From Thermoflexales bacterium (GTDB taxonomy: Bacteria; Chloroflexota; Anaerolineae; J036; Brachytrichaceae): DNA of 35,903 bases. Under the pieces are notes generated by a model. The model saw nothing but the letters and a program-made list of their open reading frames with translations, was not told the origin of the DNA and did no database searches. Made by a program: the position numbers and the translations under genes. The stretch spans positions 1 to 35,903 of the forward strand of contig JANWVF010000076.1 in NCBI GenBank assembly GCA_025056965.1. Direction: 5' to 3'. Of the stretch, positions 412-32,441 are shown piece after piece (the first letter of the stretch is position 1; each line of letters opens with the position of its first letter).

Positions 412-3400
412 ATGAGCTTCGTTCACTTACACGTGCATTCCGAGTATTCGCTGCTGGATGGCTTCGGCAACATCAAGAAGCTGGTGCGGCGTGCCAAAGA
501 GTTGGACATGCCGGCATTGGCGCTGACCGACCACGGCGCGATGTATGGGGCCATCGAGTTCTTCGATGTGTGCAGCGAGCTGGGCATCAAGCCCATCATC
601 GGCATCGAGCTATACCTGTGTAAGCGCGGGCGGCGGATGCAGGACAAGGACGCCAACTTCGACCGCAGCCCGCACCACCTGCTCCTGCTGGCGATGAATA
701 ACGCGGGCTACAAGAACCTCATGCGGCTCTCGTCGCTGGCGCAGCTGGAGGGCTACTATTACAAGCCGCGCATTGATCATGAGACGCTGGCGCAATACCA
801 CGACGGCCTCATTTGCACTTCTGGCTGTCCGTCGGCAGAGATCCCCCGCCTCATCCAACAAGGCCAGTTCGAGCAGGCGCGCCGGGTGACCCAGTGGTAT
901 CTCGACCTGTTCGGCGATCGCTTCTACTTTGAGCTGCAGGATCATGACCTGCCCGAACTCAAGCTGATCAACGAGACGCTCATCGCCTGGTCGAAGGAGA
1001 TGGGCGTGCCGCTGATCGCAACGAATGACGTGCACTACGTGCTGCGCGAAGATGCGCCGTCGCACGACCTGATGCTATGCATCCAGACCGACGCGCTGTT
1101 GAGCGACAAGGACCGGATGCGCTTCAACAACGACTCTTACTATCTGAAAAGTGCTGCCGAGATGGCCGAGCTATTCGGCCAGATCGCGCCGGAAGCGCTG
1201 ACCAACACGTTGGCCGTCGCCGAGCGTTGCACTGTCGCCCTAAAGTCAAAGACCTTTCACTTGCCCCATTTCCAATTGCCGGAGGGCTTCGCGTCGGATG
1301 CCGACTATCTGCGCCACTTGTGCTATCGAGGATTCGAGGAGAAATATGGCATTCCGGCCGTTCCGCCGCCCAACGATTCCGGTCAACCGCCGTCCGATGA
1401 GCCGATAGATCTCACCAGCCGCTCGCCGCTGGCGCTGCCCGAATCGCGCGGTAACCCCGCGCTCCGCCCTAGCGCACTACGTCAGCGGCTGGAATATGAA
1501 CTCAGCGTAATTATCGAGATGGGGTTCGCCACGTATTTCCTCATCGTGTGGGACCTTATTCGTTTCGCGCGCGAGGCCGGCATTTGGTGGAACGTGCGCG
1601 GCAGTGCCGCCGGCAGCATGGTGTCGTATGTGCTCGGCTTGAGCTACATCGAGCCGGTCAGCAACGATTTGTTGTTCGAGCGCTTCCTCAACCCCGGCCG
1701 CGTGTCTATGCCGGACATTGACATGGACTTCCCCGACGATCAACGTAGCCGATTGGTGGATTACACCATCGAGAAGTACGGGCGAGAAAACGTCGCGCAG
1801 ATCATCACCTTCGGCACGCTGGCCGCGCGCGCCGCGCTTAAGGATGTGGGGCGCGTGCTGGACATTCCTCTCAGCGAGGTATCGCGCATCACGTCGCTCG
1901 TGCCGGCCATCCCTGGCAAGCCGATCACGCTGACGCAGGCGTTGGAGCAAGTGCCCGAACTCAAACAGCTCTACGAGACCCAGCCCTACGTGCGCGAGTT
2001 ATACGACCGCGCCATCAAAGTCGAAGGCACGGTGCGCAACGCCGGCACGCATGCCGCCGGCGTGGTGATCGCCGATCGCCCACTAGTCGAGTATGCGCCG
2101 CTGAACAGGCTGACCGGCACGCCGCTCACGCCGCAGCTCAACGCGGTCACTCAGTTCGAGATGACGCACCTGGAGGCCATCGGCCTGCTGAAGATGGACT
2201 ACCTGGGGCTATCCACGCTCACCATTATGCGCAAGGCCTGCGAGCTGATCGAGCGACGGCATGGCGTCAAGCTCGACCTGACGAATATCCCGATCCACGA
2301 CCGGCGAGTCTATGACCTCTTGTCGCGCGGCGACGTGCAGGGCATATTCCAGGTGGAAGGCACCGGCATGCGCAACCTCATGATGCAGATGAAGCCGACG
2401 CGCTTCCAGCACGTCGTCGCGGCGCTAGCGCTCTTCCGACCTGGGCCGATGGAATACATCCCCACCTACATCCGCCGGATGCACGGCCAAGAGCCGGTGG
2501 AGTATCGCCACCCTGACTTAGCGCCGGCCCTGGGTGAGACATATGGCATTTGCATCACCGGCGACGCCATGCTGTTCGACCCTATCACCGGTCGGCGTTG
2601 CCGCATGGACGAGGCACAGCACATCTCTGATCTTCATCTACAAGGGGTCGCGGATGATCTTTCGCCGGTGGTTGGTCGCGTCATCCGTTGGATATACAAC
2701 GGAAAGAAACCCGTATATCGGGTGACGCTGCGCAACGGCGCCAGCATCAAGATGACATCCGACCATCGCCTGCTGACCGAAGATGGCTGGATGCCACTCA
2801 GCGCGCTCAAGTGTGGGGATTTCATCGCCACGCCGCGACAATTGCTAGGACCGAACCGCGACTATGACCGAGACCGGCTGCGTGTGCTGGCATACCTGAT
2901 TGCCGATGGCGATTTGGGCAATCTCGCTGCCGTGAACTTCGTCTCCAAAGACCCGGCGCTGCTCGATGAGTACCGACGCTGCCTGCGCGCGTTTCCCAAT
3001 GTGCGCGAGACGATGGTGCAACAAGCGCGCCAAGTCTGGCGCGTCGGCACTGCCAAAGCGCAGGTAACGGTGTATCACGAACCGAACACGTTGTTAGCCT
3101 GGCTGCGCGAATTGGGGCTGAAACACGCGCCCGGTGCTGAAAGAGGGGGATGCAGAAGCGATGAGAAGTTCGTGCCAGACTTCGTGTTCGGTCTAAGCGA
3201 GGAGGCGATTGCTTTCTTTCTGGCTTCGCTGTGGGACTGCGATGGCTACGTTGGGCACAAGCTGTGTCACTACCGCACGATCTCCGCTCGGCTCGCCTAT
3301 GACATCCAAACGCTGTTGCTGCGGCTGGGCATTCGCTCTGTTATTTACTCGAACGACTATTACACCCCCAAACGAGGCACCCGAACCGCTTATCAGGTAA

Positions 3401-5631
3401 CAGTCTATGAGGCTGCGCAACTCATGGCAAAGCTCGCGCCGTTCATGCTCACCGAGAAGCGAACGGTCGCATGCAACAGTCGTGACGGTCACACGATTCG
3501 CCGCGCCGACTTCGTCGCTGAGGTCAACACAGCGTTATCGCTTTCATATAGAGCCATACAGCGCGACTTCGGCCTGAGCGCCCAGCATTTCTACCCCCGC
3601 GCGCTTCGCCGCCCGCGCATCAGCGCACACGTCGTTGAGCAGTTGGCGCAGGCAGCGCCTCTCCCCGAAACGCTCAAGCGGCTGAGCGTAGTTTGGGAAG
3701 AGATTGTCAGGATCGAGCCGGCCGGGGTAGAGGACGTCTATGACCTAACCGTTGAGGGATTCCACAATTTCGTCGCCAACAACATCATCGTCCACAATTG
3801 CGTCTACCAAGAGCAAATCATGCGCCTGGCGCGCGACATCGCCGGCTACTCGGTGGGCGAGGCCGACACCATCCGCAAAGCCGTCGCCAAAAAGAATGCC
3901 GAACAACTGCTGAAGCACAAGACCAAGTTCCGCGAAGGCGCGGTGAAGAAAGGCTACAGCGCGGAACTGGCTGATGCCATCTTCGGCGACATCGAATACT
4001 TTGCGCGCTACGGCTTTCCCAAGGCCCACGCCGCCGACTATGCTGCCATCACCTGCCAGACGGCCTGGCTGAAGGCGACCTATCCGCTTGAATACATCTG
4101 CGCGCTGCTTACCTGCGAGAGCGGCAATACCGAGAAGATCACTGCGCTCATCGCCGACGCCAAGCTACACGGCATCAAGATCTTGCCGCCGAGCGTGAAT
4201 GCCAGCGACGCCGATTTCACCATCGAAACGCCGCCCGGCTTCAAATCCAAAGACAGCATCGGCTCGATTCGCTTCGGCCTCATGGCGATCAAAGGGGTGG
4301 GCGAGGGACCGGTGAAAGCCATCGTCGAGGCGCGCAAGAGCGGCGGGCGCTTCAGGTCACTCGATGACTTCTGCCGGCGCGTGGACATGACCGCGCTGAA
4401 CAAGCGCGCCCTCGAGGCGCTGATCAAGGCCGGGGCGTTTGACGAGTTCGGCTCGCGCGCGCAGTTGCTGGCCGTCGTGGACCAAATGATCGGCGTGGCT
4501 ACTACCGCACGTCGCGCTGCCGAGCGCGGCCAGGGCATGCTATTCGGCGGGCTGGAGAGCGCCGACGAGGCCTTGATCGTGCTGCCGAAGCAGGTGCGCG
4601 AGATCCCCCGCAAGCAACTGCTGCAAGACGAGAAGGAACTGCTCGGCACCTACGTCTCGGCGCATCCGCTCCAAGCGCAACTTGACGCGCTCCAGCAGCA
4701 GATCACGCACACCAGCGCCACGCTGAACGAAGGCGACAACGGTCAGAAGGTCGTCGTCGCCGGCGTTGTCAGCTCCATCCGCCCGCATACCACCAAGGCC
4801 GGCCAAGCTATGGCCTTCGGTGAGCTAGAGGACATGTATGGCCGGTTGGAGCTCACCATCTTCCCCAAGACCTGGGAGAAGTACCGAGACAAGTTCCAGA
4901 AGGACAAAGTGCTGCTGGTGTGGGGCAAAGCCGAGGTGCCAGCGGGTGGCACGCCGAAGATCCTGGTCGAGAAGGTCAGCGACTCGTTTGAGATCGCCCG
5001 TAGCGCCGATGATGATCGCACCCGCTTCTACTACTACGATGCGCTAAGTGCCGAGCCGGGTCACGGCGTCTCCGAGGAGGCGATCAACGCTTACTTCAAC
5101 TCGTTATCGGCCGATCCGGCCTACGCCCCCCTGCCCGATCTATCGGATGACCTGGCGGCGCTGGACGAGATCAGCTTTACCGACGACGGAGCAGTCGTTG
5201 CCGACGCGCCGGATGCAGGAAGTGGACTAATCGCCGCCAAGGACGACGCGAATGCGCCGTTCGACGTATCGCGCGACGAAGAGCGGCCTGCGTTCGTCGG
5301 AGAGGAGACGACTGTGCCGGAGGCATCGAGCGAGTCGGCGGCGGTCGAGAATCCCCATCCGGCTGCCCAGGACTTGCCCCCCCTCTTCGCCGCCCGTCAA
5401 CCCCTGCGCATCGTCATCCAACGTAACGGCGATCCGCGCAGCGACATCGCCAAGCTGGAGGCCGTGTTGCAGACGCTGCGTAAATATCGAGGCGATCACC
5501 CGTTCTGCCTGACGCTGCGCCAGGCGAACGGCAGGGCTGTGACGCTGGACTTCCCCAACGACACGACGAGGGATTGTCCGGAGCTACGCCAGGAGTTAGC
5601 AGCCCTGCTGGGCGCGTGCTGCGTCGAGTGA
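412..5631 (+). CDS. dnaE: DNA polymerase III alpha subunit with an in-frame intein
   Basis: This is the replicative polymerase catalytic subunit, 1739 residues as translated and 1323 after removal of the intein (residues 714-1129). The N-terminal PHP domain opens with [13 protein letters not shown]. The polymerase palm has PDIDMD (D435, D437) and KMDYLGL (D596), matching the three catalytic aspartates of C-family polymerases. A helix-hairpin-helix region and an OB fold (about 1440-1530) follow. QGMLF at 1374-1378 sits where the internal sliding-clamp motif of DnaE usually lies. Two parts exceed the usual family length: a Pro/Ser-rich linker (about 316-352) between PHP and palm, and an acidic Asp/Ala/Glu linker (about 1545-1660) before a C-terminal domain. 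The start at 412 lacks a strong ribosome site but matches the family N-terminus. The Cys after the intein (C1130) replaces the hydrophobic residue usual before VYQEQ. Confidence 0.97.
2551..3798 (+). mobile_element. DnaE intein with LAGLIDADG homing endonuclease
   Basis: The 416-residue insert splits the conserved extein motif [13 protein letters not shown]. All splicing positions are present: Cys first residue (C714), block B TSDH (T782, H785), a C-terminal block ending [16 protein letters not shown] with penultimate His1128 and Asn1129, and Cys1130 as the +1 nucleophile. Two dodecapeptide motifs mark the homing endonuclease: LAYLIADG (D832) and LASLWDCDG (D944), both retaining the metal-binding Asp. 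The element therefore looks able both to splice and to cut. By eye it is less GC-rich than the flanking dnaE exteins, as expected of a horizontally moving element. Confidence 0.95.
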
Positions 5632-5662: not shown

Positions 5663-5884
5663 TCAACTCGACGCCTGCGCGTCGTCGTTCGCCTCCCAGC
5701 CGATGATCCACACGCACAGGCCGGCCAGCCCGATGGTGGCCAAGATGAGGAATAGCCATTGGTTCCACAGCAGGCCGACATCTCGCGCTGCGATGATGAG
5801 GATGACTACCATGCCGGCCGCCAGTGCAATCCACGCCGCCAACCGAGGATGCTTCTCCGCAAACGCCTTCAATCTCGTCAGCAT
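5663..5884 (-). CDS. Small two-TM membrane protein
   Basis: This 73-residue protein has a short basic N-terminus (LTRLKAFAEKH), two hydrophobic helices (about residues 15-33 and 42-62), and an acidic tail ending NDDAQASS. It is probably an inner-membrane hairpin protein. It starts 19 nt after the stop of the SPFH-like gene and is likely the last gene of the long signalling operon. A weak TAGAAT just before the ATG (5896-5891) could allow separate, nearly leaderless transcription. I recognise no family. Its end faces the end of dnaE across 31 nt. Confidence 0.6.
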   Translation of the reverse strand: MLTRLKAFAEKHPRLAAWIALAAGMVVILIIAARDVGLLWNQWLFLILATIGLAGLCVWIIGWEANDDAQASS

Positions 5885-5903
5885 AAGTGGATTCTAACCC
5901 GGC

Positions 5904-6752
5904 TTATGGTCTCAGCCGGCTGCGCGGGCGCTTCTTGGGCGGCGACGGTCGGTCGTCATTGTCGGCACGATCCGCCAGCGACGGTGCGCTGCTCGGGACA
6001 TCGCGCGGCGTGGCGTCAATCACCGGCGAAGGTGCGACGTCTATCGGGTTAGACGGGAACTCGGCATATTGCCTGTAGGGCGACATGCGGCTCAGCGCCT
6101 CGATGATGTAGGCCTGCATCACGCGGCTCAGCTCGTTCGGCGTGTATTGGGCGAGGTCATGCGCGTGTATCCGGCGCCGGGAGACCTCGGCATAGCAGGC
6201 GTGCACCTCGGGTGGTGGCGTCAGGGACGACAGATACAGCCCGGTCGGCTTGAGCCCGAGGCCGTTCACGAGTTCCTTCAGGTGTGTCAAGGTATGTTGC
6301 TCGATCTCCTGGATCAGTGCGCCGCGGCACACCGCATCTATGGTCAGCCGAGCGAGCACCCGCTGCAGTGCGACGCGCGCACGCCAGCACAGTATGTCGC
6401 GCCGTTCTTCTTGCGTCCATCGTACCACCAGGTGAACAAGCTCAGGGTGAGCCTGCTCTGGAACGAACTCGAAGATCAGTTCCAGCTCAAGATCCACCGG
6501 CAGGCCGTCGCGCGTCTGGATGCCACGGAAGGGGACGCGAATCGCATCGGGCGCGACGTTGACGAAGCAGCGAATCGTCTGCGTCAATGGGTCAATGTCG
6601 AAGAAGGCAGGGCCGCGATGCAAGGAATGGAACCGTTCGTTCTCATACACCACGGCGACTTCGTCTTCGTCCACCCAATATCTGCCGAATAGACGGCCGA
6701 GCGCACGCTCCAACCGATGAAAGAGAGGGGGATGTCGCTTAGACGGTTTCAT
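5904..6752 (-). CDS. SPFH/band-7-like protein
   Basis: This 282-residue soluble protein has a band-7-like core: the segment around FRGIQTRDGLPVDLELEL (about residues 75-91) corresponds to the typical SPFH strand pair, and the following helical part (VLARLTIDAVC...LKELVNGLGL) matches the second half of the fold. It has no N-terminal membrane anchor, unlike most stomatin/flotillin homologues, and ends in a Pro/Arg-rich basic tail. I chose the ATG at 6752 because it forms an ATGA overlap with the stop of the upstream ATPase gene; an ATG five codons earlier (6767) is possible. SPFH proteins usually form membrane-associated rings. Here it could be an assembly platform for the ATPases, which is inference from context. 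Confidence 0.7.
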   Translation of the reverse strand: MKPSKRHPPLFHRLERALGRLFGRYWVDEDEVAVVYENERFHSLHRGPAFFDIDPLTQTIRCFVNVAPDAIRVPFRGIQTRDGLPVDLELELIFEFVPEQAHPELVHLVVRWTQEERRDILCWRARVALQRVLARLTIDAVCRGALIQEIEQHTLTHLKELVNGLGLKPTGLYLSSLTPPPEVHACYAEVSRRRIHAHDLAQYTPNELSRVMQAYIIEALSRMSPYRQYAEFPSNPIDVAPSPVIDATPRDVPSSAPSLADRADNDDRPSPPKKRPRSRLRP

Positions 6753-8110
6753 AGCACGAGTTGACAAGAACCTGTCGGATCAATCCGCAGGCAACCAGGT
6801 TTCACCGAGTCAAGCCGACGTTGTAGGCTAAGCAAGTACTGCGCTAATCGCGCCTCTGGGTTGCCACTATATGGTCGCGGCGATGATTCGTGCTCGAGCA
6901 TCTCGGCGAGCAGCTCGGTGCGGGTGGCCGGCCGTGGATGGCGCTCGCGGATGCGCCGCAGCAGGTGCCGCTCAACCGGGCTCAGGCCGCTGATGACATG
7001 ACCGTTGATCTGCACTGCGTCGCGCGTCGGGTCGAACTCGAAAGGGCGTCTGGCCGGCAGCGATTGAGATGCAACGAACGCAGCGAAGATCGGCGAACGG
7101 ATCACGTAGCGCCCCGACGGCTTGTGAATCACCCCCTTGGCCTCTAGTGGACGGAGAGCGTCGCCCTCGGCGGGCAGTCCACGAGCGAGTGCGGCAAGCA
7201 CGGCCTGCTCCTCCACCTCTAGGCTCTCCCAGATGCGCTCGCATTCGGGCAAAACATCAACATTATTAGACTGCAGCCGGCTCAGTGCGTTCGGTGCACC
7301 TAAGTAGAGGCTCGGATCGTGGCGCAGAGCCGTCATCGCGGCGCGCAACAAGCCGGGATGGTTACCCGACCACGCAAGCAGCGCCTCGACCGCAGCCTGT
7401 GACACCCCTCGGATACCCCACTGGGCGCTCAGCTCCTGCACCAGCGATCGAGCATCATCGTCGGCGTACGGACCGATGGCGATGGTGTGCGAGGCCATGA
7501 GCTCGTAAAGCTCTTGAAACTCAGCCTCCTCGCGCAGATAGGCTAGCTCCCGCCGAGTAAAGGTGACATACATCAGCCTGCGCTTGTGGTCATCGCGGAA
7601 CGATCGCAAGCTATTGAGCGTGGCTGATGGCGCATGCTGCACCACATGGTCGAAGTCGTCTAGCAGGATGAAGAGCTGGTCGAAGCCAGCGCGAAAGATC
7701 TCGGCGAAGGCATCCTTAAGGTTGATCCGCGCGCGCGCTGCCGATGCAATGGCTTGATCGCGCAGATCGGTCACCGTCGTCGTGAGGGGGTAAGGCGAAT
7801 GGGGCGCGTCACGCAAGGCGCGCAACAGGGCGTCGAGCATCAAGGTGTGTAGGGCAGCCGGTGTGTATTCGGCTAGATCGGTGCAGTTGACCAGGACGCT
7901 CAGACAGGCTGCAGCGGCCGGGCCGAGATGGTAGGCAAGTACGTCGTGCCGCGCCATGTGACGGGCGATGTTCGACTTGCCGGAGCTGCCCACGCCGACA
8001 AGCGAGCACGACTCGCCGGATCGCAGCACGTCCAGCGCCCGCCGGATCAGATCGCTGCAAAAGCTCAACCGACGCTTGCCGCGTGAGAGTTCATGCGTCC
8101 TTTCTTCCAT
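6749..8110 (-). CDS. P-loop (AAA/STAND-like) ATPase with C-terminal degenerate winged helix
   Basis: The product has 453 residues from the ATG at 8110, which has a GGAGG site 8 nt upstream; an ATG at 8128 would add six residues. Numbered from 8128, Walker A is GVGSSGKS (45-52) and Walker B is LFILLDDFD (152-160). A GNHPGL motif later in the sequence fits the GxP signature typical of STAND ATPases. The last ~100 residues (PTRDAVQINGHVISGLSPVERHLLRRI...) align in layout with the PhoB/OmpR-type winged helix of the next gene upstream but are divergent, lacking the clear recognition-helix and RGKGY wing. It overlaps the stop of its paralogue by 20 nt and its own stop overlaps the SPFH start. It is probably a nucleotide-switched DNA-binding or scaffold protein; the target is unknown. 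Confidence 0.8.
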   Translation of the reverse strand: MEERTHELSRGKRRLSFCSDLIRRALDVLRSGESCSLVGVGSSGKSNIARHMARHDVLAYHLGPAAAACLSVLVNCTDLAEYTPAALHTLMLDALLRALRDAPHSPYPLTTTVTDLRDQAIASAARARINLKDAFAEIFRAGFDQLFILLDDFDHVVQHAPSATLNSLRSFRDDHKRRLMYVTFTRRELAYLREEAEFQELYELMASHTIAIGPYADDDARSLVQELSAQWGIRGVSQAAVEALLAWSGNHPGLLRAAMTALRHDPSLYLGAPNALSRLQSNNVDVLPECERIWESLEVEEQAVLAALARGLPAEGDALRPLEAKGVIHKPSGRYVIRSPIFAAFVASQSLPARRPFEFDPTRDAVQINGHVISGLSPVERHLLRRIRERHPRPATRTELLAEMLEHESSPRPYSGNPEARLAQYLLSLQRRLDSVKPGCLRIDPTGSCQLVL

Positions 8111-9428
8111 CGCTCCTGCCTCCTTCATCTCCGGTTATCAGCTTATAGCCCTTGCCGCGCACGGTGACTAAGTAACGAGGCCGGTCGGCTACTGGCTCAA
8201 TCTTCTTGCGGACGCGCTTCACCAGAGCATCCACTGCGTTGTGATGCAGTGCCTCGAAGTGCTCGCCGGGATGGAGCGCCTCGAGGATCTCCTGACGGCC
8301 GTGCACCCTTCCTGGCGTGCGGGCCAGGATGGCCAGCAGGTCGAACTCGCGGGCGGTCAGGTCGGCGCGCGCCTGACCGTTCACCCACACGGTGCGGGTA
8401 TGCTCGTCCACCACCAGCCGGCCGTTGGTCGCCGGCGCGCCATAGGCGCAGACATACTGCGCGAAGATCGGGCTGAACGGTTGCCCATTTCGCACCACGC
8501 CCTTGAGCGCGAGCCCTTCAATTGCGCAGGCATCGGGCGACGGCTGACCGCGTGCCAGCCGATATAGGGCGATCTGCTCGTCGGGCGGCAGACTCATCCA
8601 CAGCTTGCGGCACTCCTCATGGACGGCATCGCCCGGCGTCGCCCGACCTTCCGTCAGCTCGTCGAACATGGCCACGATCAGTCCGGGATGCCCGCCGCTC
8701 TCCTCAATCAGAGCAGCGCGCGCCTGCGGCGCGAGCCGCCGGCCGCGGCGCGCTTCGATCTGTTCAATCACTGCGTAGGCATCGCTGCGGCTGTAGGGGG
8801 GCAGGCCGATCACCGAGCGCGAGAACAGCTCGTAGAAGCCCTCGCACTCGGCCGGCGGGCGGATGCGCTTCGGATGGTCGCGCACCACGAGCAGGTAACT
8901 GAGCCAGGCTTTGTTGTCGTCGCGCAGCGCCCGCAAGTTAGCCAGCGCCAGCGGCGGCAATGCGCGATAGGCCTCATCGAACTCGTCGAGGATGACGCAT
9001 AGCCGAAAACCGCGCTCGCGGCACAGCATCAGCGCCGCCAGCTCGACATGCCGCCGGGCCAGCAGGGCATTGCCGCTGCTGATGATCACTTCCCGGCGCA
9101 GGGCGTTCAACTCGTTGCGCAGGCCGTGCAAGTCGGCATGCTGGCCGCACGCTTCAACCATCGCGGTGAGGATCAGCTCGAAGAATCCCCACTCCGAGAT
9201 TTCGGCCAGACGATTGCAATCGCAATAGGCGAACAAGGTGACGTCGGCCTGCTCGCGCAGGTAGTGGGCGCGCGTCTCCGCTTCCAGCAAGAAGCGCAGC
9301 AGGCGCGACTTGCCCATGCTGGCGCAGCCAACGATGGCGCACGACTCGCGTGCGCGGATTAGCTCGAACAGCGGACCGAGGATCTCGGCGCGATACGTCG
9401 GATTCATCGCGGCCATGGCGAATTTCAC
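8091..9428 (-). CDS. P-loop (AAA/STAND-like) ATPase fused to a PhoB-type winged helix
   Basis: This 445-residue protein has Walker A GCASMGKS (34-41), Walker B CVILDEFD (144-151), and a GGHPGL motif (245-250) typical of STAND/AAA-like ATPases. Residues about 336-432 form an OmpR/PhoB DNA-binding domain: LTAREFDLLAILARTPGRV, a recognition helix around NAVDALVKRVRKKI, and the wing YLVTVRGKGYKL. It has no receiver domain, so the ATPase takes the place of the phospho-switch, with nucleotide state probably controlling DNA binding. The GTG start at 9428 overlaps the preceding stop as GTGA; ATGs at 9416 or 9407 are alternatives. The preceding gene does carry a receiver, so the two may act together. 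Confidence 0.85.
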   Translation of the reverse strand: MKFAMAAMNPTYRAEILGPLFELIRARESCAIVGCASMGKSRLLRFLLEAETRAHYLREQADVTLFAYCDCNRLAEISEWGFFELILTAMVEACGQHADLHGLRNELNALRREVIISSGNALLARRHVELAALMLCRERGFRLCVILDEFDEAYRALPPLALANLRALRDDNKAWLSYLLVVRDHPKRIRPPAECEGFYELFSRSVIGLPPYSRSDAYAVIEQIEARRGRRLAPQARAALIEESGGHPGLIVAMFDELTEGRATPGDAVHEECRKLWMSLPPDEQIALYRLARGQPSPDACAIEGLALKGVVRNGQPFSPIFAQYVCAYGAPATNGRLVVDEHTRTVWVNGQARADLTAREFDLLAILARTPGRVHGRQEILEALHPGEHFEALHHNAVDALVKRVRKKIEPVADRPRYLVTVRGKGYKLITGDEGGRSDGRKDA

Positions 9429-11188
9429 TCCTCACCGACTCTGACCGGCAGGATGGCCTCCGTGCGCGCCGGCAGCGCCTCCGGCTGTGGCCAGTCTTGC
9501 GGCGGCCAGTCGCCACCCCAGGCAGCCAGGCGCTCGGCGATGAGCGCGGCGCTCAGCAGGGCACGCGAACGCGCGGCGTTCCGCGCGCTTGCGTCCGCGT
9601 CGGAATACTTGCGCAGCAGCGAGATCAGCGTCTCCATCAGCAGCGCCCAGTAATACTGCTTCAACTCGTCGGGTTCGCCGGTCAGCCCGCAGAACAACCG
9701 GCGCAGCGTGGAAATGGCGTCGAACGCCTTTTGCAGTTCGCCGCGCAGGCGGGGGGATAGGTCGGGCAAATTGTCCCAGTCCGGCGGGGCGAGCCGGTCG
9801 TTTCCTGCGACCGGCGCGAGCAACGCCAGATCGAGGGCATAGGCGAGACGCAGCTGATCGCGTGGAATCGGCGTCAGCCGCAGCTGGATGTCGGTCTCCA
9901 GCTCGGCGAAGTCGCGCAGGATGTATCCTGAGCCGGAGCGCTCGTAGTCCAACACGTATGTCTTGCAGTCCTGGTCCACGAAGATGTTGCCGCTGTGGAG
10001 GTCGCCATGGGTTGCCGCTTCCCATCGCGAGCGGAAGGAGGATTGCAGACGATGCCGATACGCCCAACTCACGGGGTTGCGCAACATAAGCGCCCTTCCA
10101 ACCAGTGATGCTGCGTCGAACCGCTCGCTGTTTTGATTACAGTAATCCAGAATGCGGCGCTCAAAATCGGGTGTGAACATGTGGGCGACGTAATAGCTGT
10201 AGACTGATTGCACGTCTACACTGCCGCGCTCTTTGTAAAGCGGGCGCAGCGTGACGTTGAACAGGTCTTCTAGCGCTCGCCGCACCTGTTCGCCAGATGC
10301 GCGGGGATACCAGCTGCGGAACAATCGGCGATCCTCGCGGGCGATGTTGGTGTAACGGATTGCGCCGATGTGCCACAATGTGACGCTGTGCCCCTGATCC
10401 TCAATGCGCGCGCAACGTTCGGGGAGCAGCAAGCCCTTGATCCACTGTCTGTAGTTGCTTACTTCGCTCTTGATTTTCTCCGCGGCAGCCACTTTCACGA
10501 CCTCACGCTGCAACGCGACGCGATCGGCACGGATAGGTTCCGCAATGTAGACGCCGGCGCGCGCGGGCGCGCTGCTCGACATCTGAGACGTGGAGGGCGG
10601 GTCGGGCGTGACCAAATGTACCTTGGCGATGCTCGGGCTTTCCCCGCGATAGAGCCGCACTAGGGCGCAGCGGATTTCCTCCTCGCTCGCCTCCGGGTTG
10701 TCTTTGAGCGTTTTGCTGCGCAGTTCATCGCAGCCCGGGCCACTGATCTGAAGGTTACACGGGCAGAACTGCTCGAATGCGCACTTGACTCTACCTAGGA
10801 GCTCGTCCGGATCTTCGCCTTTCTCGAGGACAAAGCTACCGTGGGCGTTCGCCCGATTCGTGAGCTGGATAGTAGCGTAGGCAGTTACGATAATGCAGGC
10901 CGTTGGCTTCAAATCCTTGGCCAGGTGCAAGCCCGCTTCATCTGTGCCTGGTCCGAACAGCGCTAAGTCCACAATCGCCACGCGGCAGCCATATGCCCGC
11001 GACTTCGTCTTGGCGTCTGCGATCAGCGCCTCACCTTGACCTTCGGCGATGATCGGCTCATAGCCCTGCGTCCTGAGATCGCAGGCGTGATCCTGGGCAG
11101 TCTGCACATCATCATCCACGACCAACACGCGCCGGGAAGCGTTGCAAGACCAACTCAGATTGTCTGAGTCTTCTCCCACTCGGTTCAT
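9425..11188 (-). CDS. Response-regulator receiver fused to an APH-like kinase domain
   Basis: The 587 residues begin with a complete receiver: D25-D27 acidic pocket, phospho-acceptor D74, T102 and K123. From about residue 185 a protein-kinase/aminoglycoside-phosphotransferase-like fold follows, with VVKV (K232) and E242 in the N-lobe, the Brenner motif HGDLHSGN (H394, D396, N401), and the metal-binding D414 in YVLDYERS. All catalytic residues of that fold are present, so a phosphotransferase acting on a protein or small molecule is likely, switched by phosphorylation of the receiver. A GAGGAA ribosome site lies 8 nt before the ATG. The gene starts 24 nt after the five-GAF kinase and couples by GTGA to the ATPase gene. 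Resistance to aminoglycosides is unlikely given the context. Confidence 0.85.
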   Translation of the reverse strand: MNRVGEDSDNLSWSCNASRRVLVVDDDVQTAQDHACDLRTQGYEPIIAEGQGEALIADAKTKSRAYGCRVAIVDLALFGPGTDEAGLHLAKDLKPTACIIVTAYATIQLTNRANAHGSFVLEKGEDPDELLGRVKCAFEQFCPCNLQISGPGCDELRSKTLKDNPEASEEEIRCALVRLYRGESPSIAKVHLVTPDPPSTSQMSSSAPARAGVYIAEPIRADRVALQREVVKVAAAEKIKSEVSNYRQWIKGLLLPERCARIEDQGHSVTLWHIGAIRYTNIAREDRRLFRSWYPRASGEQVRRALEDLFNVTLRPLYKERGSVDVQSVYSYYVAHMFTPDFERRILDYCNQNSERFDAASLVGRALMLRNPVSWAYRHRLQSSFRSRWEAATHGDLHSGNIFVDQDCKTYVLDYERSGSGYILRDFAELETDIQLRLTPIPRDQLRLAYALDLALLAPVAGNDRLAPPDWDNLPDLSPRLRGELQKAFDAISTLRRLFCGLTGEPDELKQYYWALLMETLISLLRKYSDADASARNAARSRALLSAALIAERLAAWGGDWPPQDWPQPEALPARTEAILPVRVGEE

Positions 11189-11212
11189 CGCAACTTCCTC
11201 AGATCAACATGG

Positions 11213-14200
11213 TCACCTCGCGCCCACATGAGGCGGCGCGACGGGCAGGAGGATGATGAAGGCGGCGCCTTGAGGCGGCTGTTCATCGGCCAGGCGCACG
11301 ATGCCTCCCATCGCCTCGATGTACTGGCGGACGCGAAGCAAGCCAATCCCATGCCCTAGGCTGTTGTCAATCTTCTCGCGGAAGAGACGCAGGCGCAATT
11401 CCGGAAGCACGCCCGGCCCGTCATCCTCGACGCGCACCTCGACCCAGCGGCCGGCACGCAGCCGGGTGTTCACGGTGAGACGGCTGCCCTGCTTCCCATT
11501 GGACATGGCCGCCACGGCGTTGCCCACTAGGTGGCCGAGCGCCCAGCGCAACCCTTTGGGATTGACGCGCACCCGCACGTCGCCACAATTTAGGACGGGA
11601 TCGAGCGCCAGCGCCGCCGTCGGACGTTGCCGCCAGGCCTCCTGGACGAACTCGCGAACCAGCGTGTCGCAGGGCACGTCACGATACTCGGGCTGCTTCT
11701 CGTTATCGCTCCCCAGTGCTTTCTTAAAGGCCAGCCACAAGCGCGCCACGCCTTCGCCTATCTCTGTGACCCACCTGCGACCCTGTTCAGAAAGGCCAAT
11801 CGAATCATGCAGCAACCATCTAACGCGCCGTCGAATGCTGAGAAACTCTCTGCCTGCGCCGTGCGCGAAGTCCACGAAGCCACCGGTCGCCACCGCCAGC
11901 GCCGTTTGATAGCGCAATCGGTCGGTCAGTTCGTCGCGCTCCATCACCAGGCCGATCTGGCGGGCGATGCCGCGCATCTGCTCCTCGTCATCCTCGTTGA
12001 ACGCCTGCAGGTTTGGGCTCTCCAGGATTAGCACGCCAAGCAGGTCGCCGCTGCTGCTCATCAGCGAGGCGCAAAGCTCAGGGCGCATGCCCGCGCAGCC
12101 CGGCAAGAAGTAAGGATCTGCGCTCGCGTCCGGGCAGTTGTAGACCTCAAGCTCGCGCGTTTCAAGTGCCAAGCGCGCCACATGGCCGGCGATGCTGCGA
12201 TCGCCAACCGGTAGCGTGCCGGTCTCACTCACGTCGTCGAAGGGGTAGAAATCGAGCGAAGCCGGTGCTACCTTCAACGCGCTCTCCGCAGGGGCGTATG
12301 TGTAAATCGCGACTTTGGCGTGCGGGTAGTGCTTCTTAAGCAATACCATGATGCGGCGTAGCGCTTCGTCTTTGCTGAAGGTAGTGGCAGCCAACTCGGT
12401 CACTTGCAGGGCAAGGTCACGCTGATCACGCTGTTTCTCGGCGAACTCCAGCAGAATCGAGTCGCGAATGCTGCCGGCGGCGAGATCGGCCAACACCTTG
12501 AAGAGGAAGCGCTCCTCCGCGGTGAAGACGTGCGGATGCCGATAGTTCAGGAACATGACGCCGACGGTTTCACCCCCGGCGCGCAGCGGCAGAATGGCGA
12601 CCGAGCGGATGCCCTCGCGCCGAACGAAGTCCTTGCTGAAGTCGTCCCTGCCGGTATGCTCGATGAAGCGCGGCGCCTCCAAGTCGAAGCCACGCTGGAC
12701 GACGCCGCCCGCGGTTGCGCGCTCTGCGTAGAGCGCGTCTAGGTCGCGCACGCCGAAATGCGTTCCGAGTATCAGATCTTTGGTTCCCCAAACCAGATGC
12801 CAAAGGGTCAAGGCCGACAGATCACGGGCAACCTCGCGCATGACTCGCTTGATCTCGTCCAAGGTATCGGCCAGGTTGATCGGCGCGGCGATCCGGCGCG
12901 CCACCTCCAGCACGCGTCGTCGGTCGGCTAGGCAACGCGCATTGTCGAGCGCCAGCGCGGCCACGTCGGCCAGGTCCTCCAGCGCCCGGGCATGTGCCTC
13001 GTTGAAGGCGTTCGGGAAGGGGGACTCGACGTTGAGCGCGCCGAGAATCGCCGCCGGATTCGGCTCATCGCCGCGCCGGATCGGCGCGACTAACTGGCTG
13101 CGCGTCCCGCGCCCGTGAACGTCATAGAAGTGCGCCTGCCACTCTGAGGCCGTCACGTCCGCCGCTCGCTGAGTCTGACCGGTGCGCAGCGCAAGCCCAG
13201 TGATGCCGCGGAACGGGTCGGCCTCCCGATTGCACCGGAGTGCGCCGCCGGCGTCTAGAAAGTATTCGCGGCGGATCTCGCGGGGTTCGGGGTCTACCGG
13301 TTCATCGGCGCGCTCCCAGTCGCGCAGGTTGACCTCGACGACGGCCTGCGGCAGGTTGATGATCTCGCGGGCAGCATCCAGAAGGGCGCGCACTACGTCT
13401 TCTAAGCAGGCGTCCGGCTGCAGAGCCGCGTCCATCACGCGCTGGTGACTGGCCAGCTCCCGAGCGCGCGCCTCCCGCTCTGCTGCGGCAGCGTCGCGCG
13501 TCCGCTGCGCTGCCCGCCAATTCTGGATCGCTACGGCGGCCAGCCTGGTGAACATCTTAGCCTGAGTCAGCTCGGGATGGCCGAACATCTGGGGGGATCG
13601 CCAGTACAAGCGCAGCGCGCCGAGCGTCTCGCCTGTCTCCACCGACCGCACTGGCGCGCAGATCAGCGCGCGGACGCCCTCTTCGCTCAGCACGGGGTGC
13701 GTTTCGATCAGCCGCCGCAGGTCAGGCGATCCAGGCTCGTCCGTGTCGGGAACCGCCAGCATCCCCTCGCGCAAGGCCTTAGCGGTCAGGCCGTCCGGGC
13801 GCGGCATGCGGATCGGGTCAGGCACCTTCTGCCAGCCGGCATGGCCAGCCTGCTCGATGTCGTAGGTGACCCGCGTGCCGTCTGCAGTAGCTGGCACAAT
13901 CGAAGCGCAATCTACGCCGACCACCTCGCGCGTAACCTGGCAAATCTCGGCCAGGGTGTCCTTCAAGGATGGCCGGTCAGCATGCGCAAGGATGTCGCAG
14001 GTGAGCGCGTTCAGCCGCGTCTGGCGCTCATAGCGCCAGGCCCGCGCCAGCACGGTGGACGCCTCGCGGCAGAACTTGCGCAGCAGCCGGAGCTGCTCAG
14101 GCACGATCTCGCGCGGCCGGATGACATTGTCGAGCGCAAGCAGGCCAACCGAATGCCCCTCAGCTTGCAACGGCGCAAGCAGCCATTCGCCAACCGGCGC

Positions 14201-14920
14201 ACAACGACCTTGAGCCGACTCCTGGCAGGTGAGGCAATCCGGCCCAAGCTCTTCACCACGGAAGCGCATGATCTCGGCGGGGGACGTCAGGGCGCGGGCG
14301 GCGTAAGGCGATTGGGCGACGGGGATATGGTGCTGCTGCATCTCGGCCGATGCGCAGTCGCCGGCGGCTGCCAGCCCGATCAGGATTTGCGGCATGCCAT
14401 CACGCGCCGACGTCCCGGCGGCTGCGTCCACCCACCACAGCCGTGCGCGCTCGAAGCCCATCTGCAGGCCGCTCCGGACGATGACTTCGGCAGCCTCCCG
14501 GAGCGATTCAGCGCGGTCGGCCCGACGCATCGCCTCGTCCAGTGCGCGCAGGCCGTTCAATTGGCGCAAGCGCCAGGTCAACTCGGGGATTAGGACATCC
14601 CCTTTCGGGAGATAGCACCACGCACCGGCCTGCAGCGCGCGATAGCCGACTTCGGGATCGTCGAAGCCGGTGAAGATGATCGCCTCGGCATTCGGCTGCA
14701 GGCGCATCAAATCTTCCATCGCGGCGATGCCGTCTTTGCCGGGGCCTAGCCGCTCATCAATCAGGAAGACGTCGAATGGCTGCGCCTCCTCTTCTGCGAT
14801 CCGCACAGCTTCCTCCGGCCTCTGCGCCGTGGCCACTTGGATCGGCAACTCGTATCGCAATCGCTTGGCCATTTGATCCGTGAATAGCGGATCGTCATCT
14901 AGGATCAGCGCGCGAATCAT
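11213..14920 (-). CDS. Hybrid histidine kinase: receiver, five GAF domains, HATPase
   Basis: I chose the ATG at 14920 because GGAGGGG lies 6 nt upstream and the receiver begins at once (MIRALILDDD). An upstream ATG at 15067, 9 nt after the previous stop, would add 49 featureless residues. The 1235-residue product has a receiver with D55, T84 and K106. Five GAF-type sensor modules follow (roughly 130-295, 305-490, 510-690, 700-860, 870-1030), then an H-box-like helix (DFAHGAGREF, His near 1018) and a C-terminal HATPase (GHLVGNAVAAM, DDGPGV, GHGIGL). No membrane helix is seen, so it is a cytosolic sensor. GAF1 holds a Cys cluster (DCLTCQESAQGRC, about 226-238) that could bind a metal or sense redox. 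It likely phosphorylates itself and neighbouring receivers. Confidence 0.88.
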   Translation of the reverse strand: MIRALILDDDPLFTDQMAKRLRYELPIQVATAQRPEEAVRIAEEEAQPFDVFLIDERLGPGKDGIAAMEDLMRLQPNAEAIIFTGFDDPEVGYRALQAGAWCYLPKGDVLIPELTWRLRQLNGLRALDEAMRRADRAESLREAAEVIVRSGLQMGFERARLWWVDAAAGTSARDGMPQILIGLAAAGDCASAEMQQHHIPVAQSPYAARALTSPAEIMRFRGEELGPDCLTCQESAQGRCAPVGEWLLAPLQAEGHSVGLLALDNVIRPREIVPEQLRLLRKFCREASTVLARAWRYERQTRLNALTCDILAHADRPSLKDTLAEICQVTREVVGVDCASIVPATADGTRVTYDIEQAGHAGWQKVPDPIRMPRPDGLTAKALREGMLAVPDTDEPGSPDLRRLIETHPVLSEEGVRALICAPVRSVETGETLGALRLYWRSPQMFGHPELTQAKMFTRLAAVAIQNWRAAQRTRDAAAAEREARARELASHQRVMDAALQPDACLEDVVRALLDAAREIINLPQAVVEVNLRDWERADEPVDPEPREIRREYFLDAGGALRCNREADPFRGITGLALRTGQTQRAADVTASEWQAHFYDVHGRGTRSQLVAPIRRGDEPNPAAILGALNVESPFPNAFNEAHARALEDLADVAALALDNARCLADRRRVLEVARRIAAPINLADTLDEIKRVMREVARDLSALTLWHLVWGTKDLILGTHFGVRDLDALYAERATAGGVVQRGFDLEAPRFIEHTGRDDFSKDFVRREGIRSVAILPLRAGGETVGVMFLNYRHPHVFTAEERFLFKVLADLAAGSIRDSILLEFAEKQRDQRDLALQVTELAATTFSKDEALRRIMVLLKKHYPHAKVAIYTYAPAESALKVAPASLDFYPFDDVSETGTLPVGDRSIAGHVARLALETRELEVYNCPDASADPYFLPGCAGMRPELCASLMSSSGDLLGVLILESPNLQAFNEDDEEQMRGIARQIGLVMERDELTDRLRYQTALAVATGGFVDFAHGAGREFLSIRRRVRWLLHDSIGLSEQGRRWVTEIGEGVARLWLAFKKALGSDNEKQPEYRDVPCDTLVREFVQEAWRQRPTAALALDPVLNCGDVRVRVNPKGLRWALGHLVGNAVAAMSNGKQGSRLTVNTRLRAGRWVEVRVEDDGPGVLPELRLRLFREKIDNSLGHGIGLLRVRQYIEAMGGIVRLADEQPPQGAAFIILLPVAPPHVGAR

Positions 14921-15076
14921 CTGCTTCCCCTCCACGGCGAACATGTGATCATCCCCCTTCGTGAAATCCAATCCGCTCACGAGCCGCACGCGCACCGCAA
15001 TTGCCCCCATGCGCGTAGGCCCCGCGTGAGCTCGAATCGCGCGTTGTGGCAGCGTATGCTCCTTCATTAAACACCG

Positions 15077-17323
15077 CTAGACCCCTCCCGGCAACTCCAC
15101 AACTATGCGGGTGCCCCACAACATGGCGCTCTCGGCGACGTAGATGCGGCCGTGCATCGCCTCCATGAGATGGCGCGCGACGTATAGCCCCAGCCCGCTG
15201 CCACCGTCGCTGCGCGTGGTGAAGCCTAAGTCGAAGATGCGTTGCCGATCGCGCAGGTGGATACCCGGCCCGTCGTCCTCCACGCTTACGATGACGACCG
15301 GTCCGGCGCGCCGCTGCCGCTCCTCGATGCGCACGCGCACGCGCCCCACGTGGCCTTCCCGATGCTCCTTCCTAGACCGCAGCAAGGCAATCTGCTGCAC
15401 CGCGTTGAGCATCACGTTGAGCAGGACGTGCTGCAGATGGACCGGGTTGGCACGCGCGATCACCATGCGCTCGGGCATCTCCACCTGGACATCCACGCCG
15501 GCGCGGTCGGCCTCGTCGCGCAGCATCTGAACCGCTTCCTGAGCTTCGTGCTCCACCCGCACGGCGTGAACGCTCGATTGCGTCGCGAAGCGCCGGAACA
15601 GCTCGTTCATGCGCGACAGCGACGCAACGCTCTCCAGCGCATGCGCAAGCATGCCCTGAGCGCAGCGCAGCGAATCCTGTGCCGACGCCGGCGCGATGGC
15701 CAGCGCGCGCTCGACCTCGCCGAGCTGCCGCTCCAATGATTTCAATGCCTCCTTGGCTGCAGGGATGCGGTTGTTCATCTCATGCACTAGGCCGCGATTC
15801 AACTGGCCGAGCAACATATCGCGCTGAAGCGTCACGATGCGGGCGACCATCTCACGGCGATCCAGCGCCGCGCCGACGGCTAGCGCGCCGGCGCGCGCCT
15901 GTTCACGGCGCGCCTCGTCGAAGACGGTAGGCCGGTCGTAGAAGAAGAAAAGGGCGTAGCGTGTCGTCGCATCCACGGGCACCGGCACGCCTAGACACGC
16001 TTGGAAGTGAAGCAGCGGCAGCAAGTAGCGCACCCTAGCAGCAGCCGCTTCGACGTTCTCAATGACACAAAACTCGCGGTCCTCGGCTACGTCCCGCACC
16101 GGACTATGAATCAAATTGGCTGCCGTCTGAATTGCCAGCCGCTCGTCATCGCGAGGAAGCTCGATCTCCACCTTGCGGGCCTCTCGATCGAGCTTGAACA
16201 GCACGGCTAGCGAGGCGCGGGTCAGGCGCTGGGCGCGCAACACGGCCTGGGCCAACAGCCGCTGCGGCTCTGCGTAGGCAGCAGCCGGCGCCTGCCATTC
16301 ATGCGCAGCGGCCGGCCTCGTCAATTCGCTGGTCTGCGAGGCCAGGAGCACATCGAGCAGATCTTCAGCCTCGAAGGGCTTCGGCAAGATCTTCACACCG
16401 CGCGCCAGCAGCTGCTCCAGTGCCGGATTCGCCTTGCCGGTGAGGCAGCCCCAATCGCCGGAGGTCAGCACACCGTGCATCTGCGGCGCAACGTCCAGCA
16501 TGCGAGCCAGCGCCTCCAAGCCCGATATGCCCGGCAGATGCACGTCCATAATCACCAGGTCGAAGGCCGCCCCGGAGGCCAGGCGCGCAAGGGCTTCTTC
16601 GGCCGATGCAGCGCCGTCGGCGTGTTGGCCGGCGCTGCGCAGCCATCGCACCCAGCATTCCCGATGCTTGTCGTCGTTATCCACGATCAGCACGACACAT
16701 GGGCGCGGCAGACCGGCCAGCTGCAGCGGTAATCGCACTCCCCGTTTTGAAGTGACGGGGATGCCAGAACGCAATTCGTCCCGCATCCTGTCGTTCAAGC
16801 GCGCGTCGTCGTCCGACCAGCGCACGGCGCGAATGTCACGCATAGTTAGGGCAATCCGCCGCTGACCGATGTCAACATGCTGCACGACTGCCTTCACCGC
16901 GTCACCGATCCAGAACACATCTTCGATCGGTCGCTTGCACCAAGTCGGCAGATTTGATTGGTGTAGGAGTCCGGCGACGCCTGGCCGTAGCTCGACGAAG
17001 ACGCCATAGGGCTGCACGGCAGTGACGATGCCCTCGACCAGTTGCCCAGGGGAGAGCCAGTCGCCGACGGTGAGCCACGGGTCATCCTGGGCCAGGCGAA
17101 CGCTCAACTCCAGAGACTCGCCGTTCCGTTCGCCCAGCATCACTGCCTGGACTTTGACGCCCGGCCGATAAGTCTGCTGCCAGTTTCGCCGCTCCTCGGC
17201 CGTCCAGGCCAGCTCGCGCTCACGAATGATGGCCTTCCGACCATCCTCCAGCTTGACGAGCAGGCCAAAGGGCATGATCCGGATCACCTCACAGGTGAAG
17301 AGCGTGGTCATCGTGGTGGACAT
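15077..17323 (-). CDS. Histidine kinase with two S1 RNA-binding domains, receiver and GAF
   Basis: This 748-residue protein has an unusual domain order. Two S1 (OB-fold) domains come first: about 6-77 and about 92-163, the second with GQLVEGIVTAVQPYGVFVEL and IGQRRIALTMRDI, typical of ribosomal protein S1 and Tex/PNPase-type modules. A complete receiver follows (208-330; acidic D215/D217, acceptor D260, T287, K315), then a GAF-like domain (about 350-490), an H-box GLVHEMNN (H514), and an HATPase (NVMLNAVQ, DDGPGI, GGSGLGLYVARHL). All kinase motifs are intact. S1 domains bind single-stranded RNA, so RNA sensing or ribosome association is a reasonable inference. This is the first gene of the minus-strand signalling run; the ATG at 17323 or the one at 17311 may be used. 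Confidence 0.88.
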   Translation of the reverse strand: MSTTMTTLFTCEVIRIMPFGLLVKLEDGRKAIIRERELAWTAEERRNWQQTYRPGVKVQAVMLGERNGESLELSVRLAQDDPWLTVGDWLSPGQLVEGIVTAVQPYGVFVELRPGVAGLLHQSNLPTWCKRPIEDVFWIGDAVKAVVQHVDIGQRRIALTMRDIRAVRWSDDDARLNDRMRDELRSGIPVTSKRGVRLPLQLAGLPRPCVVLIVDNDDKHRECWVRWLRSAGQHADGAASAEEALARLASGAAFDLVIMDVHLPGISGLEALARMLDVAPQMHGVLTSGDWGCLTGKANPALEQLLARGVKILPKPFEAEDLLDVLLASQTSELTRPAAAHEWQAPAAAYAEPQRLLAQAVLRAQRLTRASLAVLFKLDREARKVEIELPRDDERLAIQTAANLIHSPVRDVAEDREFCVIENVEAAAARVRYLLPLLHFQACLGVPVPVDATTRYALFFFYDRPTVFDEARREQARAGALAVGAALDRREMVARIVTLQRDMLLGQLNRGLVHEMNNRIPAAKEALKSLERQLGEVERALAIAPASAQDSLRCAQGMLAHALESVASLSRMNELFRRFATQSSVHAVRVEHEAQEAVQMLRDEADRAGVDVQVEMPERMVIARANPVHLQHVLLNVMLNAVQQIALLRSRKEHREGHVGRVRVRIEERQRRAGPVVIVSVEDDGPGIHLRDRQRIFDLGFTTRSDGGSGLGLYVARHLMEAMHGRIYVAESAMLWGTRIVVELPGGV

Positions 17324-17353: not shown

Positions 17354-17401
17354 CTGTCAGAAACGTTCAAATTCTCAGCACTTTCATGACTTTTCTGACA
17401 G
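17354..17401. repeat. 48-bp dyad (10-bp perfect arms) between prfB and the signalling operon
   Basis: CTGTCAGAAA at 17354-17363 is exactly repeated inverted as TTTCTGACAG at 17392-17401, with 28 nt between. It lies in the 242-nt divergent gap between the S1-kinase gene and prfB. Spaced inverted half-sites in such a place suggest a regulator binding site with looping or two dimers; a transcript hairpin is the alternative. Confidence 0.45.
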
Positions 17402-32387: not shown

Positions 32388-32441
32388 TGTGGGTTAAGGC
32401 ATTCGAGTGGGAAGCCCAACACTCGGCGTTTCCCGTCTGCG

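What the first reader, a model, noticed from the sequence alone, without database searches (positions are those of the whole stretch)
5663..17323. Seven-gene coupled signalling operon: RNA-binding histidine kinase, GAF kinase, receiver-kinase fusion, twin ATPase-winged-helix proteins, SPFH
Seen: seven minus-strand genes run with overlaps or gaps below about 25 nt (or 156 nt if the later start at 14920 is used), including GTGA and ATGA junctions. Together they hold three receivers, two histidine kinases, one APH-like phosphotransferase, two STAND-like ATPases with DNA-binding tails, and a band-7 protein, but no classical output operon. Family knowledge: each part is a known fold. Inference: a phosphorelay from two cytosolic kinases to a receiver-gated phosphotransferase that in turn acts on nucleotide-switched DNA-binding ATPases, perhaps held at the membrane by the SPFH ring and the two-TM protein. 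I know of no named system with this set.
Basis: partly seen in the sequence, partly recalled or inferred. Interest (0 to 1): 0.8.

Follow-up and report, generated by a model that had tools for sequence, protein, structure and literature searches.

The report
Phosphorelay feeding a kinase hub
A block of six neighbouring genes in a Chloroflexota bacterium looks like a self-contained alarm circuit, in which two sensor kinases switch on a third, unusual kinase that controls DNA-binding ATPases; in related bacteria that third protein is fused to cell-suicide or antiviral domains, so this is probably an undescribed defence-type or stress-response system.

Summary
The run is real, but it is a six-gene island, not seven. 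The 73-aa two-TM gene is a core gene in 25 of 28 family genomes and remains where the island is absent. Core: S1-S1-REC-GAF-kinase, REC-GAF-kinase, and a REC-APH hub (Pfam TCAD9, active motifs). Added here: two AAA+/STAND-like ATPases with winged-helix tails and an SPFH protein. All 33 hub loci with the S1-kinase also have the GAF-kinase. In two sister genomes purQ and the two-TM gene lie 88-89 nt apart; in others the island sits between them.

New results: (1) In 27 S1-linked loci the hub kinase is intact (24 keep an ATPase gene). In 6 others, one clade, the hub is a pseudokinase fused to its own winged helix, with no ATPase. So kinase catalysis probably serves the ATPase. (2) Six other hubs carry TIR, CHAT, caspase or SIR2 domains. 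(3) A CTGTCAGAA-N30-TTCTGACAG inverted repeat precedes the S1-kinase, once per genome, in 5/5 genus genomes with the island and 0/4 without: a probable operator, so the first output may be the circuit's own promoter.

Best reading: a phosphorelay-gated kinase/ATPase switch, probably for defence or programmed death. Biochemistry and role are inferred.

The parts
17354..17401 (.). Operator-like inverted repeat CTGTCAGAA-N30-TTCTGACAG just upstream of the S1-kinase
   Evidence: Only site within 3 mismatches in the 3.1 Mb genome; exact, once each, in 5/5 genus genomes with the island and 0/4 without; arms 18/18 invariant against 15/30 spacer positions
15077..17323 (-). S1-S1-REC-GAF histidine kinase (748 aa)
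   Evidence: Pfam S1 6e-19 (2 stretches), Response_reg 2e-14, GAF_2 4e-7, HATPase_c 2e-20; H514, N, G boxes and receiver D260/K315 invariant in 8 homologues
11213..14920 (-). REC-multi-GAF histidine kinase; ORF open from 15067, start at 14920 favoured
   Evidence: Pfam Response_reg, GAF x5, HATPase_c; orthologue starts; H-box His in 51/51 homologues
9425..11188 (-). REC-APH (TCAD9) kinase hub (587 aa), catalytic residues intact
   Evidence: TCAD9 3e-22, APH 1e-6; K232, E242, HGDxxxxN, D414 intact; AlphaFold pLDDT 88, receiver plus APH/MTR-kinase fold
8091..9428 (-). AAA+/STAND-like ATPase 1 with OmpR/VicR-type winged helix
   Evidence: Trans_reg_C 4e-19, AAA_16 1.5e-6; model pLDDT 91, ORC/MNS-like ATPase fold and VicR winged helix
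6749..8128 (-). AAA+/STAND-like ATPase 2 with cryptic winged-helix tail
   Evidence: AAA_16 1e-7; tail matches ATPase 1 tail, hhalign probability 96.9
5904..6752 (-). SPFH/Band 7 protein, no fused effector; facultative partner
   Evidence: Band_7 1.8e-9; last gene of the island before the two-TM core gene in G218, G303, G197
5663..5884 (-). 73-aa two-TM protein: neighbouring core gene, NOT part of the system
   Evidence: In 25/28 family genomes with or without the island; dN/dS 0.06-0.08; next to purQ in empty sites

Best explanation
This is one gain/loss unit of six genes plus its promoter: a Chloroflexota phosphorelay that gates a kinase hub. Proposed working: the S1-REC-GAF kinase and the REC-GAF kinase autophosphorylate on a signal sensed through GAF domains, with the S1 domains possibly sensing RNA or the translation machinery. 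They pass phosphate to the receiver of the REC-APH hub, which releases the APH-fold kinase. The kinase acts on, or through, the AAA+/STAND-like ATPase(s). In this genus the ATPases carry OmpR/VicR-type winged helices that bind the CTGTCAG inverted repeat and control the system's own promoter, so the first output is autoregulation, probably positive amplification. In relatives the hub's C-terminus carries TIR, CHAT, caspase or SIR2 effectors, or a winged helix on a dead kinase. The circuit is therefore a general switch with exchangeable outputs, most likely used for defence or programmed cell death. Shown: gene content, linkage, boundaries, residue conservation, effector fusions, operator conservation. 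Inferred: every phosphotransfer step, the kinase substrate, which protein binds the operator, and the biological role.
For: Linkage: 33/33 hub loci with an S1-kinase within 9 kb also have the GAF-kinase; of 20 S1-kinase genomes, 19 show the GAF-kinase next door and one is cut by a contig end. Catalytic residues kept. Active hubs 24/27 with an ATPase gene against 0/6 pseudokinase hubs, all 6 with a fused Trans_reg_C (Fisher p 8e-5, but the six are one clade). Effectors on hubs: TIR_2 2e-23 and 9e-17, CHAT 9e-11 and 6e-20, Peptidase_C14 9e-20, SIR2_2 1e-7, plus a stand-alone TIR gene in the L045 operon, 3e-25. PADLOC defence models agree for TIR, CHAT and caspase (ThsB 1e-19, chat 9e-18, caspase 4e-13). 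The caspase-fused hub L050 is the sister of the window genus in the hub tree. Operator. Empty site between purQ and the two-TM gene.
Against: The window's hub has no fused effector and the island has no recognised effector gene, so the defence role is by association only. The pseudokinase/ATPase exclusion is one evolutionary event. Active hubs without a nearby ATPase exist (L044 and L065 among S1-linked loci, with L076 cut by a contig end, and 19 others without the S1-kinase). The operator is seen only in this genus; no equivalent was found upstream in other lineages. PADLOC gives no credible match for the window's island proteins: only marginal SduA matches in receiver regions. No hub match in phages or viral contigs and no S1-kinase match in plasmids. 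TIR, CHAT and caspase domains also occur outside phage defence.
Confidence: 0.55

Rival explanations
1. An ordinary physiological stress or metabolic regulatory system. The two cytosolic kinases sense redox, ligand or translation state; the hub kinase modifies a small metabolite or the ATPases, and the winged-helix ATPases regulate genes. The effector fusions in relatives are side branches, not the main use.
For: The window version has no effector domain; six hubs end in a plain winged helix; about 58 of the 64 hubs in the tree lack a recognised effector domain; the APH fold is closest to small-molecule kinases; the island sits beside housekeeping genes.
Against: Repeated fusion to TIR, CHAT, caspase and SIR2, at least two origins for TIR, and patchy presence in about 7% of class genomes and in 5 of 9 genus genomes are unusual for a housekeeping regulator.
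Confidence: 0.27
2. The hub kinase does not modify the ATPases; it makes or modifies a small molecule that the STAND-like ATPases or effectors sense, so the coupling is by second messenger.
For: APH and methylthioribose-kinase fold; Kaur et al. [quoted passage not shown] STAND-type ATPases commonly sense ligands.
Against: No substrate-site evidence; the ATPase is lost together with the catalysis, which direct protein phosphorylation also explains.
Confidence: 0.3
3. The conserved repeat is bound by a regulator encoded elsewhere and the ATPase tails regulate other genes.
For: No binding data; OmpR-type proteins usually bind direct repeats; the operator is not found outside the genus although winged-helix ATPases are.
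Against: The repeat is absent from the four genus genomes that lack the island and occurs once per genome where the island is present.
Confidence: 0.3

Closest known systems
Detocs (defensive two-component system, three genes)
   Same: A two-component phosphorelay whose receiver-bearing protein is joined to an effector domain; here TIR/CHAT/caspase/SIR2 fusions in relatives. A review describes Detocs as a 3-gene defence family that degrades ATP (PMC11249213); finer gene details are from memory.
   Different: Two kinases with S1, REC and GAF domains; an APH-fold kinase between receiver and effector; AAA+/STAND-like ATPases, SPFH and an own-promoter operator. No PNP effector seen here.
vWA-MoxR ternary and related conflict systems (Kaur et al. 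2020, 2021); the TCAD and EAD domain names belong to this work (from memory)
   Same: APH-like kinase, receivers, STAND NTPases and TIR/caspase effectors, found among others in Chloroflexi (PMC7159879, PMC8195603).
   Different: No MoxR, vWA or VMAP hit in the island. Those papers report receivers without histidine kinases and no histidine kinase among vWA-associated effectors; here two kinases are part of the unit.
Multi-step two-component phosphorelays with REC-controlled histidine kinases
   Same: Receivers on both kinases plus a separate receiver output protein with conserved Asp and Lys.
   Different: The output is an APH-fold kinase rather than a DNA-binding domain, and it occurs with an ATPase pair.
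STAND / MNS-clade and ORC/Cdc6-like AAA+ ATPases
   Same: P-loop, Walker B, SGGHPG motif; fold matches 2QEN, 2FNA and ORC2.
   Different: An OmpR/VicR-type response-regulator winged helix as C-terminal tail, twin copies, and genetic coupling to a kinase hub.

Membership tests
Two-component phosphorelay | Histidine kinase with H, N, G1 and G2 boxes | tested here: met
   S1-kinase H514, N636/N640, D683/G685/G687 invariant in 8 homologues; GAF-kinase His in 51/51, N, G1 and G2 boxes mostly kept.
Two-component phosphorelay | Receiver with phospho-accepting Asp and Lys on the output protein | tested here: met
   Hub D74 and K123 in nearly all homologues, also in pseudokinase hubs; receiver fold matches.
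Two-component phosphorelay | Phosphate actually transferred between the parts | not testable with these tools
   Needs biochemistry.
Detocs | Three-gene set with receiver-effector protein such as PNP | tested here: not met
   Six genes of other architecture; no PNP domain among Pfam hits of the island or of the ten homologous hubs scanned.
vWA-MoxR ternary conflict system | MoxR ATPase plus vWA protein plus third component in one operon | tested here: not met
   No MoxR, vWA or VMAP hit among the island proteins or the neighbouring homologue genes scanned.
TCAD9 / APH-fold kinase | Sequence match to PF19974 above its cut-off | tested here: met
   79.7 bits against a cut-off of 40.
TCAD9 / APH-fold kinase | Catalytic residues of an active APH-type kinase | tested here: met
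   K232, E242, HGDxxxxN and D414 intact in the window; lost in 6/6 hubs that carry a winged helix.
STAND NTPase | P-loop, Walker B, GxP-type motif and winged helix in a STAND-type ATPase | tested here: inconclusive
   Walker A/B and SGGHPG conserved, MNS/ORC-like fold; Pfam nSTAND1 only weak (0.0066): STAND-like, not proven.
Anti-phage defence system | Experimental phage restriction | not testable with these tools
   Only association with effector domains in homologues.
Anti-phage defence system | Match of the window's island proteins to known defence models | tested here: not met
   PADLOC: only marginal SduA matches in receiver regions.

The most novel reading that the evidence does not exclude
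A new class of bacterial immune or suicide circuit: a true histidine-aspartate phosphorelay that switches on an APH-fold kinase, which licenses STAND-like ATPases or fused TIR/CHAT/caspase/SIR2 effectors, with RNA- or translation-sensing S1 domains at its entry and autoamplification through a dedicated operator.
Probability: 0.3. Interest if true: 0.88.

Novelty: new variant of a known kind. Interest (0 to 1): 0.68.

Why it matters
It links three things usually kept apart: two-component signalling, APH-fold kinases and STAND-like/effector conflict machinery. The clade in which the hub kinase has died, gained its own winged helix and lost the ATPase is a natural experiment that predicts the kinase's partner. 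A single dedicated operator gives an immediate DNA-binding test. If the defence reading holds, histidine kinases with S1 domains would be a new kind of infection or stress sensor in Chloroflexota.

Tried and rejected
Two-TM gene as a member or effector: rejected, core gene. Search for the operator elsewhere in the own genome (up to 3 mismatches) and in island-free genus members (up to 2): none. Search for a comparable repeat upstream of homologous operons in other lineages: nothing consistent. Mobile carriage: no S1-kinase homologue in PLSDB plasmids and no hub homologue in phage records or IMG/VR contigs. Larger hub alignment A3 was too diverse for the collection scans; a four-member one worked. 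PADLOC gave no credible system for the window's island proteins. Literature searches found no report of this set; the Detocs primary paper is not in the library. I first took G248 to carry the island elsewhere; its flanks are consistent with the same site split over two contigs.
Full report
What is there. The window is a whole 35.9 kb contig of a 3.1 Mb draft genome. On the minus strand, between the end of dnaE and divergent prfB, lie an S1-S1-REC-GAF-kinase (15077-17323), a REC-GAF-kinase (11213-14920 by orthologue starts; ORF open from 15067), a REC-APH hub (9425-11188), two AAA_16 ATPases with winged-helix tails (8091-9428 and 6749-8128), an SPFH protein (5904-6752) and a 73-aa two-TM ORF (5663-5884). 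The hub's APH region is Pfam TCAD9 (E 3e-22). Its AlphaFold model (pLDDT 88) matches receivers and the APH(3')-Ia and methylthioribose kinase folds. ATPase 1 (pLDDT 91) matches ORC/Cdc6-like and MNS-type P-loop ATPases and, in its tail, the VicR/YycF DNA-binding domain. The second tail, invisible to Pfam, matches the first by profile comparison (probability 96.9).

Boundaries. The two-TM gene is present in 25 of 28 family genomes, with or without the rest. In G041 and G304, purQ and the two-TM gene are 88-89 nt apart. In G218, G303 and G197 the whole island lies between them; in G248 purQ precedes the S1-kinase on one contig and the two-TM gene opens another. So the unit that comes and goes is the six genes plus the promoter. 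In the window prfB, not purQ, lies on that side. Within the genus dN/dS is 0.16-0.36 for the six genes and 0.06-0.08 for the two-TM gene.

Conservation. The hub was found in 21 of 298 class genomes and the S1-kinase in 20 of 298. Wherever contigs allow, an S1-kinase has the GAF-kinase beside it; 33 of 33 hub loci with an S1-kinase within 9 kb also have the GAF-kinase. A scan of one genome per species gave 47 loci (some of them the same genomes as), nearly all Chloroflexota, with one Gemmatales hub-ATPase pair and a few distant hub-only matches in other phyla. Gene order S1-kinase, GAF-kinase, hub, ATPase recurs; many Anaerolineales loci add an SPFH gene and an unknown ~370-aa gene upstream. 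An ATPase-SPFH gene pair like that of the window recurs in L043, L045 and L046, and with a small gap in L040. The hub also occurs with the GAF-kinase but without the S1-kinase, so GAF-kinase plus hub is the widest core.

Mechanism from comparison. Kinase H, N and G boxes, receiver Asp/Lys and APH catalytic residues are kept. In six loci, one clade with 100/100 support, the APH domain has lost the ATP-binding lysine, the catalytic Asp and, in all but one, the Asn; the hub carries a Trans_reg_C tail (1e-19 to 9e-6), keeps the receiver Asp and Lys, and has no ATPase gene nearby. Among S1-linked loci, active hubs have an ATPase gene in 24 of 27 and pseudokinase hubs in 0 of 6 (Fisher p 8e-5, but this is one event on the tree). 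Of the three exceptions, L065 has TIR on the hub, L076 ends at the contig, and L044 is unexplained. The simplest inference is that hub catalysis works on or through the ATPase. About 20 ATPases stop near residue 350 without a winged helix, so DNA binding is an exchangeable output.

Effectors. C-terminal domains on homologous hubs: TIR (L026/L065, the same genome, 2e-23; L085, 9e-17), CHAT (L083, 6e-20; L038, 9e-11, followed by a TIR start), caspase (L050, 9e-20) and SIR2_2 (L081, 1e-7). L045 has a stand-alone TIR gene in the operon (3e-25). PADLOC defence models match the TIR, CHAT and caspase parts. TIR needs two origins, and L050 is the closest relative of the window genus in the hub tree. 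The window itself has no such domain, so the conflict role is by association.

Operator. CTGTCAGAA-N30-TTCTGACAG lies upstream of the S1-kinase, exactly once in each of five genus genomes with the island and in none of four without. It is the only site within three mismatches in the own genome. Arms are invariant (18/18) against 15/30 spacer positions. The right arm ends about 12 bp upstream of a conserved extended -10-like TGCTANNAT, a layout known from activator sites of PhoB-type regulators (from memory). The tail is RstA/VicR/PhoB-like and the half-site resembles the Pho box CTGTCAT (from memory). I infer autoregulation, more likely positive. The binding protein is unproven, and no equivalent was found outside the genus.

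Comparison with the known. The nearest working analogue is Detocs. The nearest domain relatives are the ternary conflict systems. The defining parts of both are missing here (membership table). Kaur et al. 2020 and 2021 report receivers without histidine kinases in those systems, so a kinase-driven version with an active APH hub looks undescribed in the open literature I could search. I rate it a new variant of a known kind.

Limits. No biochemistry, expression or phage data. The genomes are mostly draft MAGs. ORFs in homologous loci were called mechanically with first possible starts. Linkage statistics count loci, not independent events.

Noticed in passing
412-5631 +: dnaE carries an intein: Intein_splicing 1.9e-21 (residues 757-1129) and LAGLIDADG_3 3.7e-14; the G218 orthologue shows an insert in the same sequence context.
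   Followed up: partly
28143-33728 -: A second conflict-type module: nSTAND1-WD40 protein (28143-32387, 4e-105) preceded by an EAD7 protein (32442-33728, 1e-8), with a Ser/Thr kinase at 34596-35876.
   Followed up: no
L064 2859-3977 and equivalents in L053, L057, L061, L062, L067, L071, L074, L077, L078, L079, L084: An unknown ~370-aa protein family, no Pfam match in the two members tested, next to an SPFH gene where tested and upstream of the S1-kinase in most of these loci.
   Followed up: partly
L048 3508-4800; L054 765-2132: In a variant locus type, an alanyl-tRNA-synthetase-like gene (tRNA-synt_2c 1e-57 in L048) precedes a GAF-kinase, stand-alone receivers and a hub.
   Followed up: no
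L038 9589-14343: The hub-CHAT-TIR gene appears broken: the hub ORF ends within a TIR domain, then comes a 556-aa ORF that looks like a transposase by eye, then a short ORF that looks like the rest of a TIR domain by eye.
   Followed up: partly
11213-14920 -: The GAF-kinase is shorter here (1284-aa ORF, 5 GAF stretches) than in genus member G303 (1677 aa, 7 GAF stretches): GAF number varies within the genus.
   Followed up: no
L083 58-4254: A Gemmatales (Planctomycetota) contig encodes a hub-CHAT protein and a winged-helix ATPase, a possible transfer outside Chloroflexota.
   Followed up: partly
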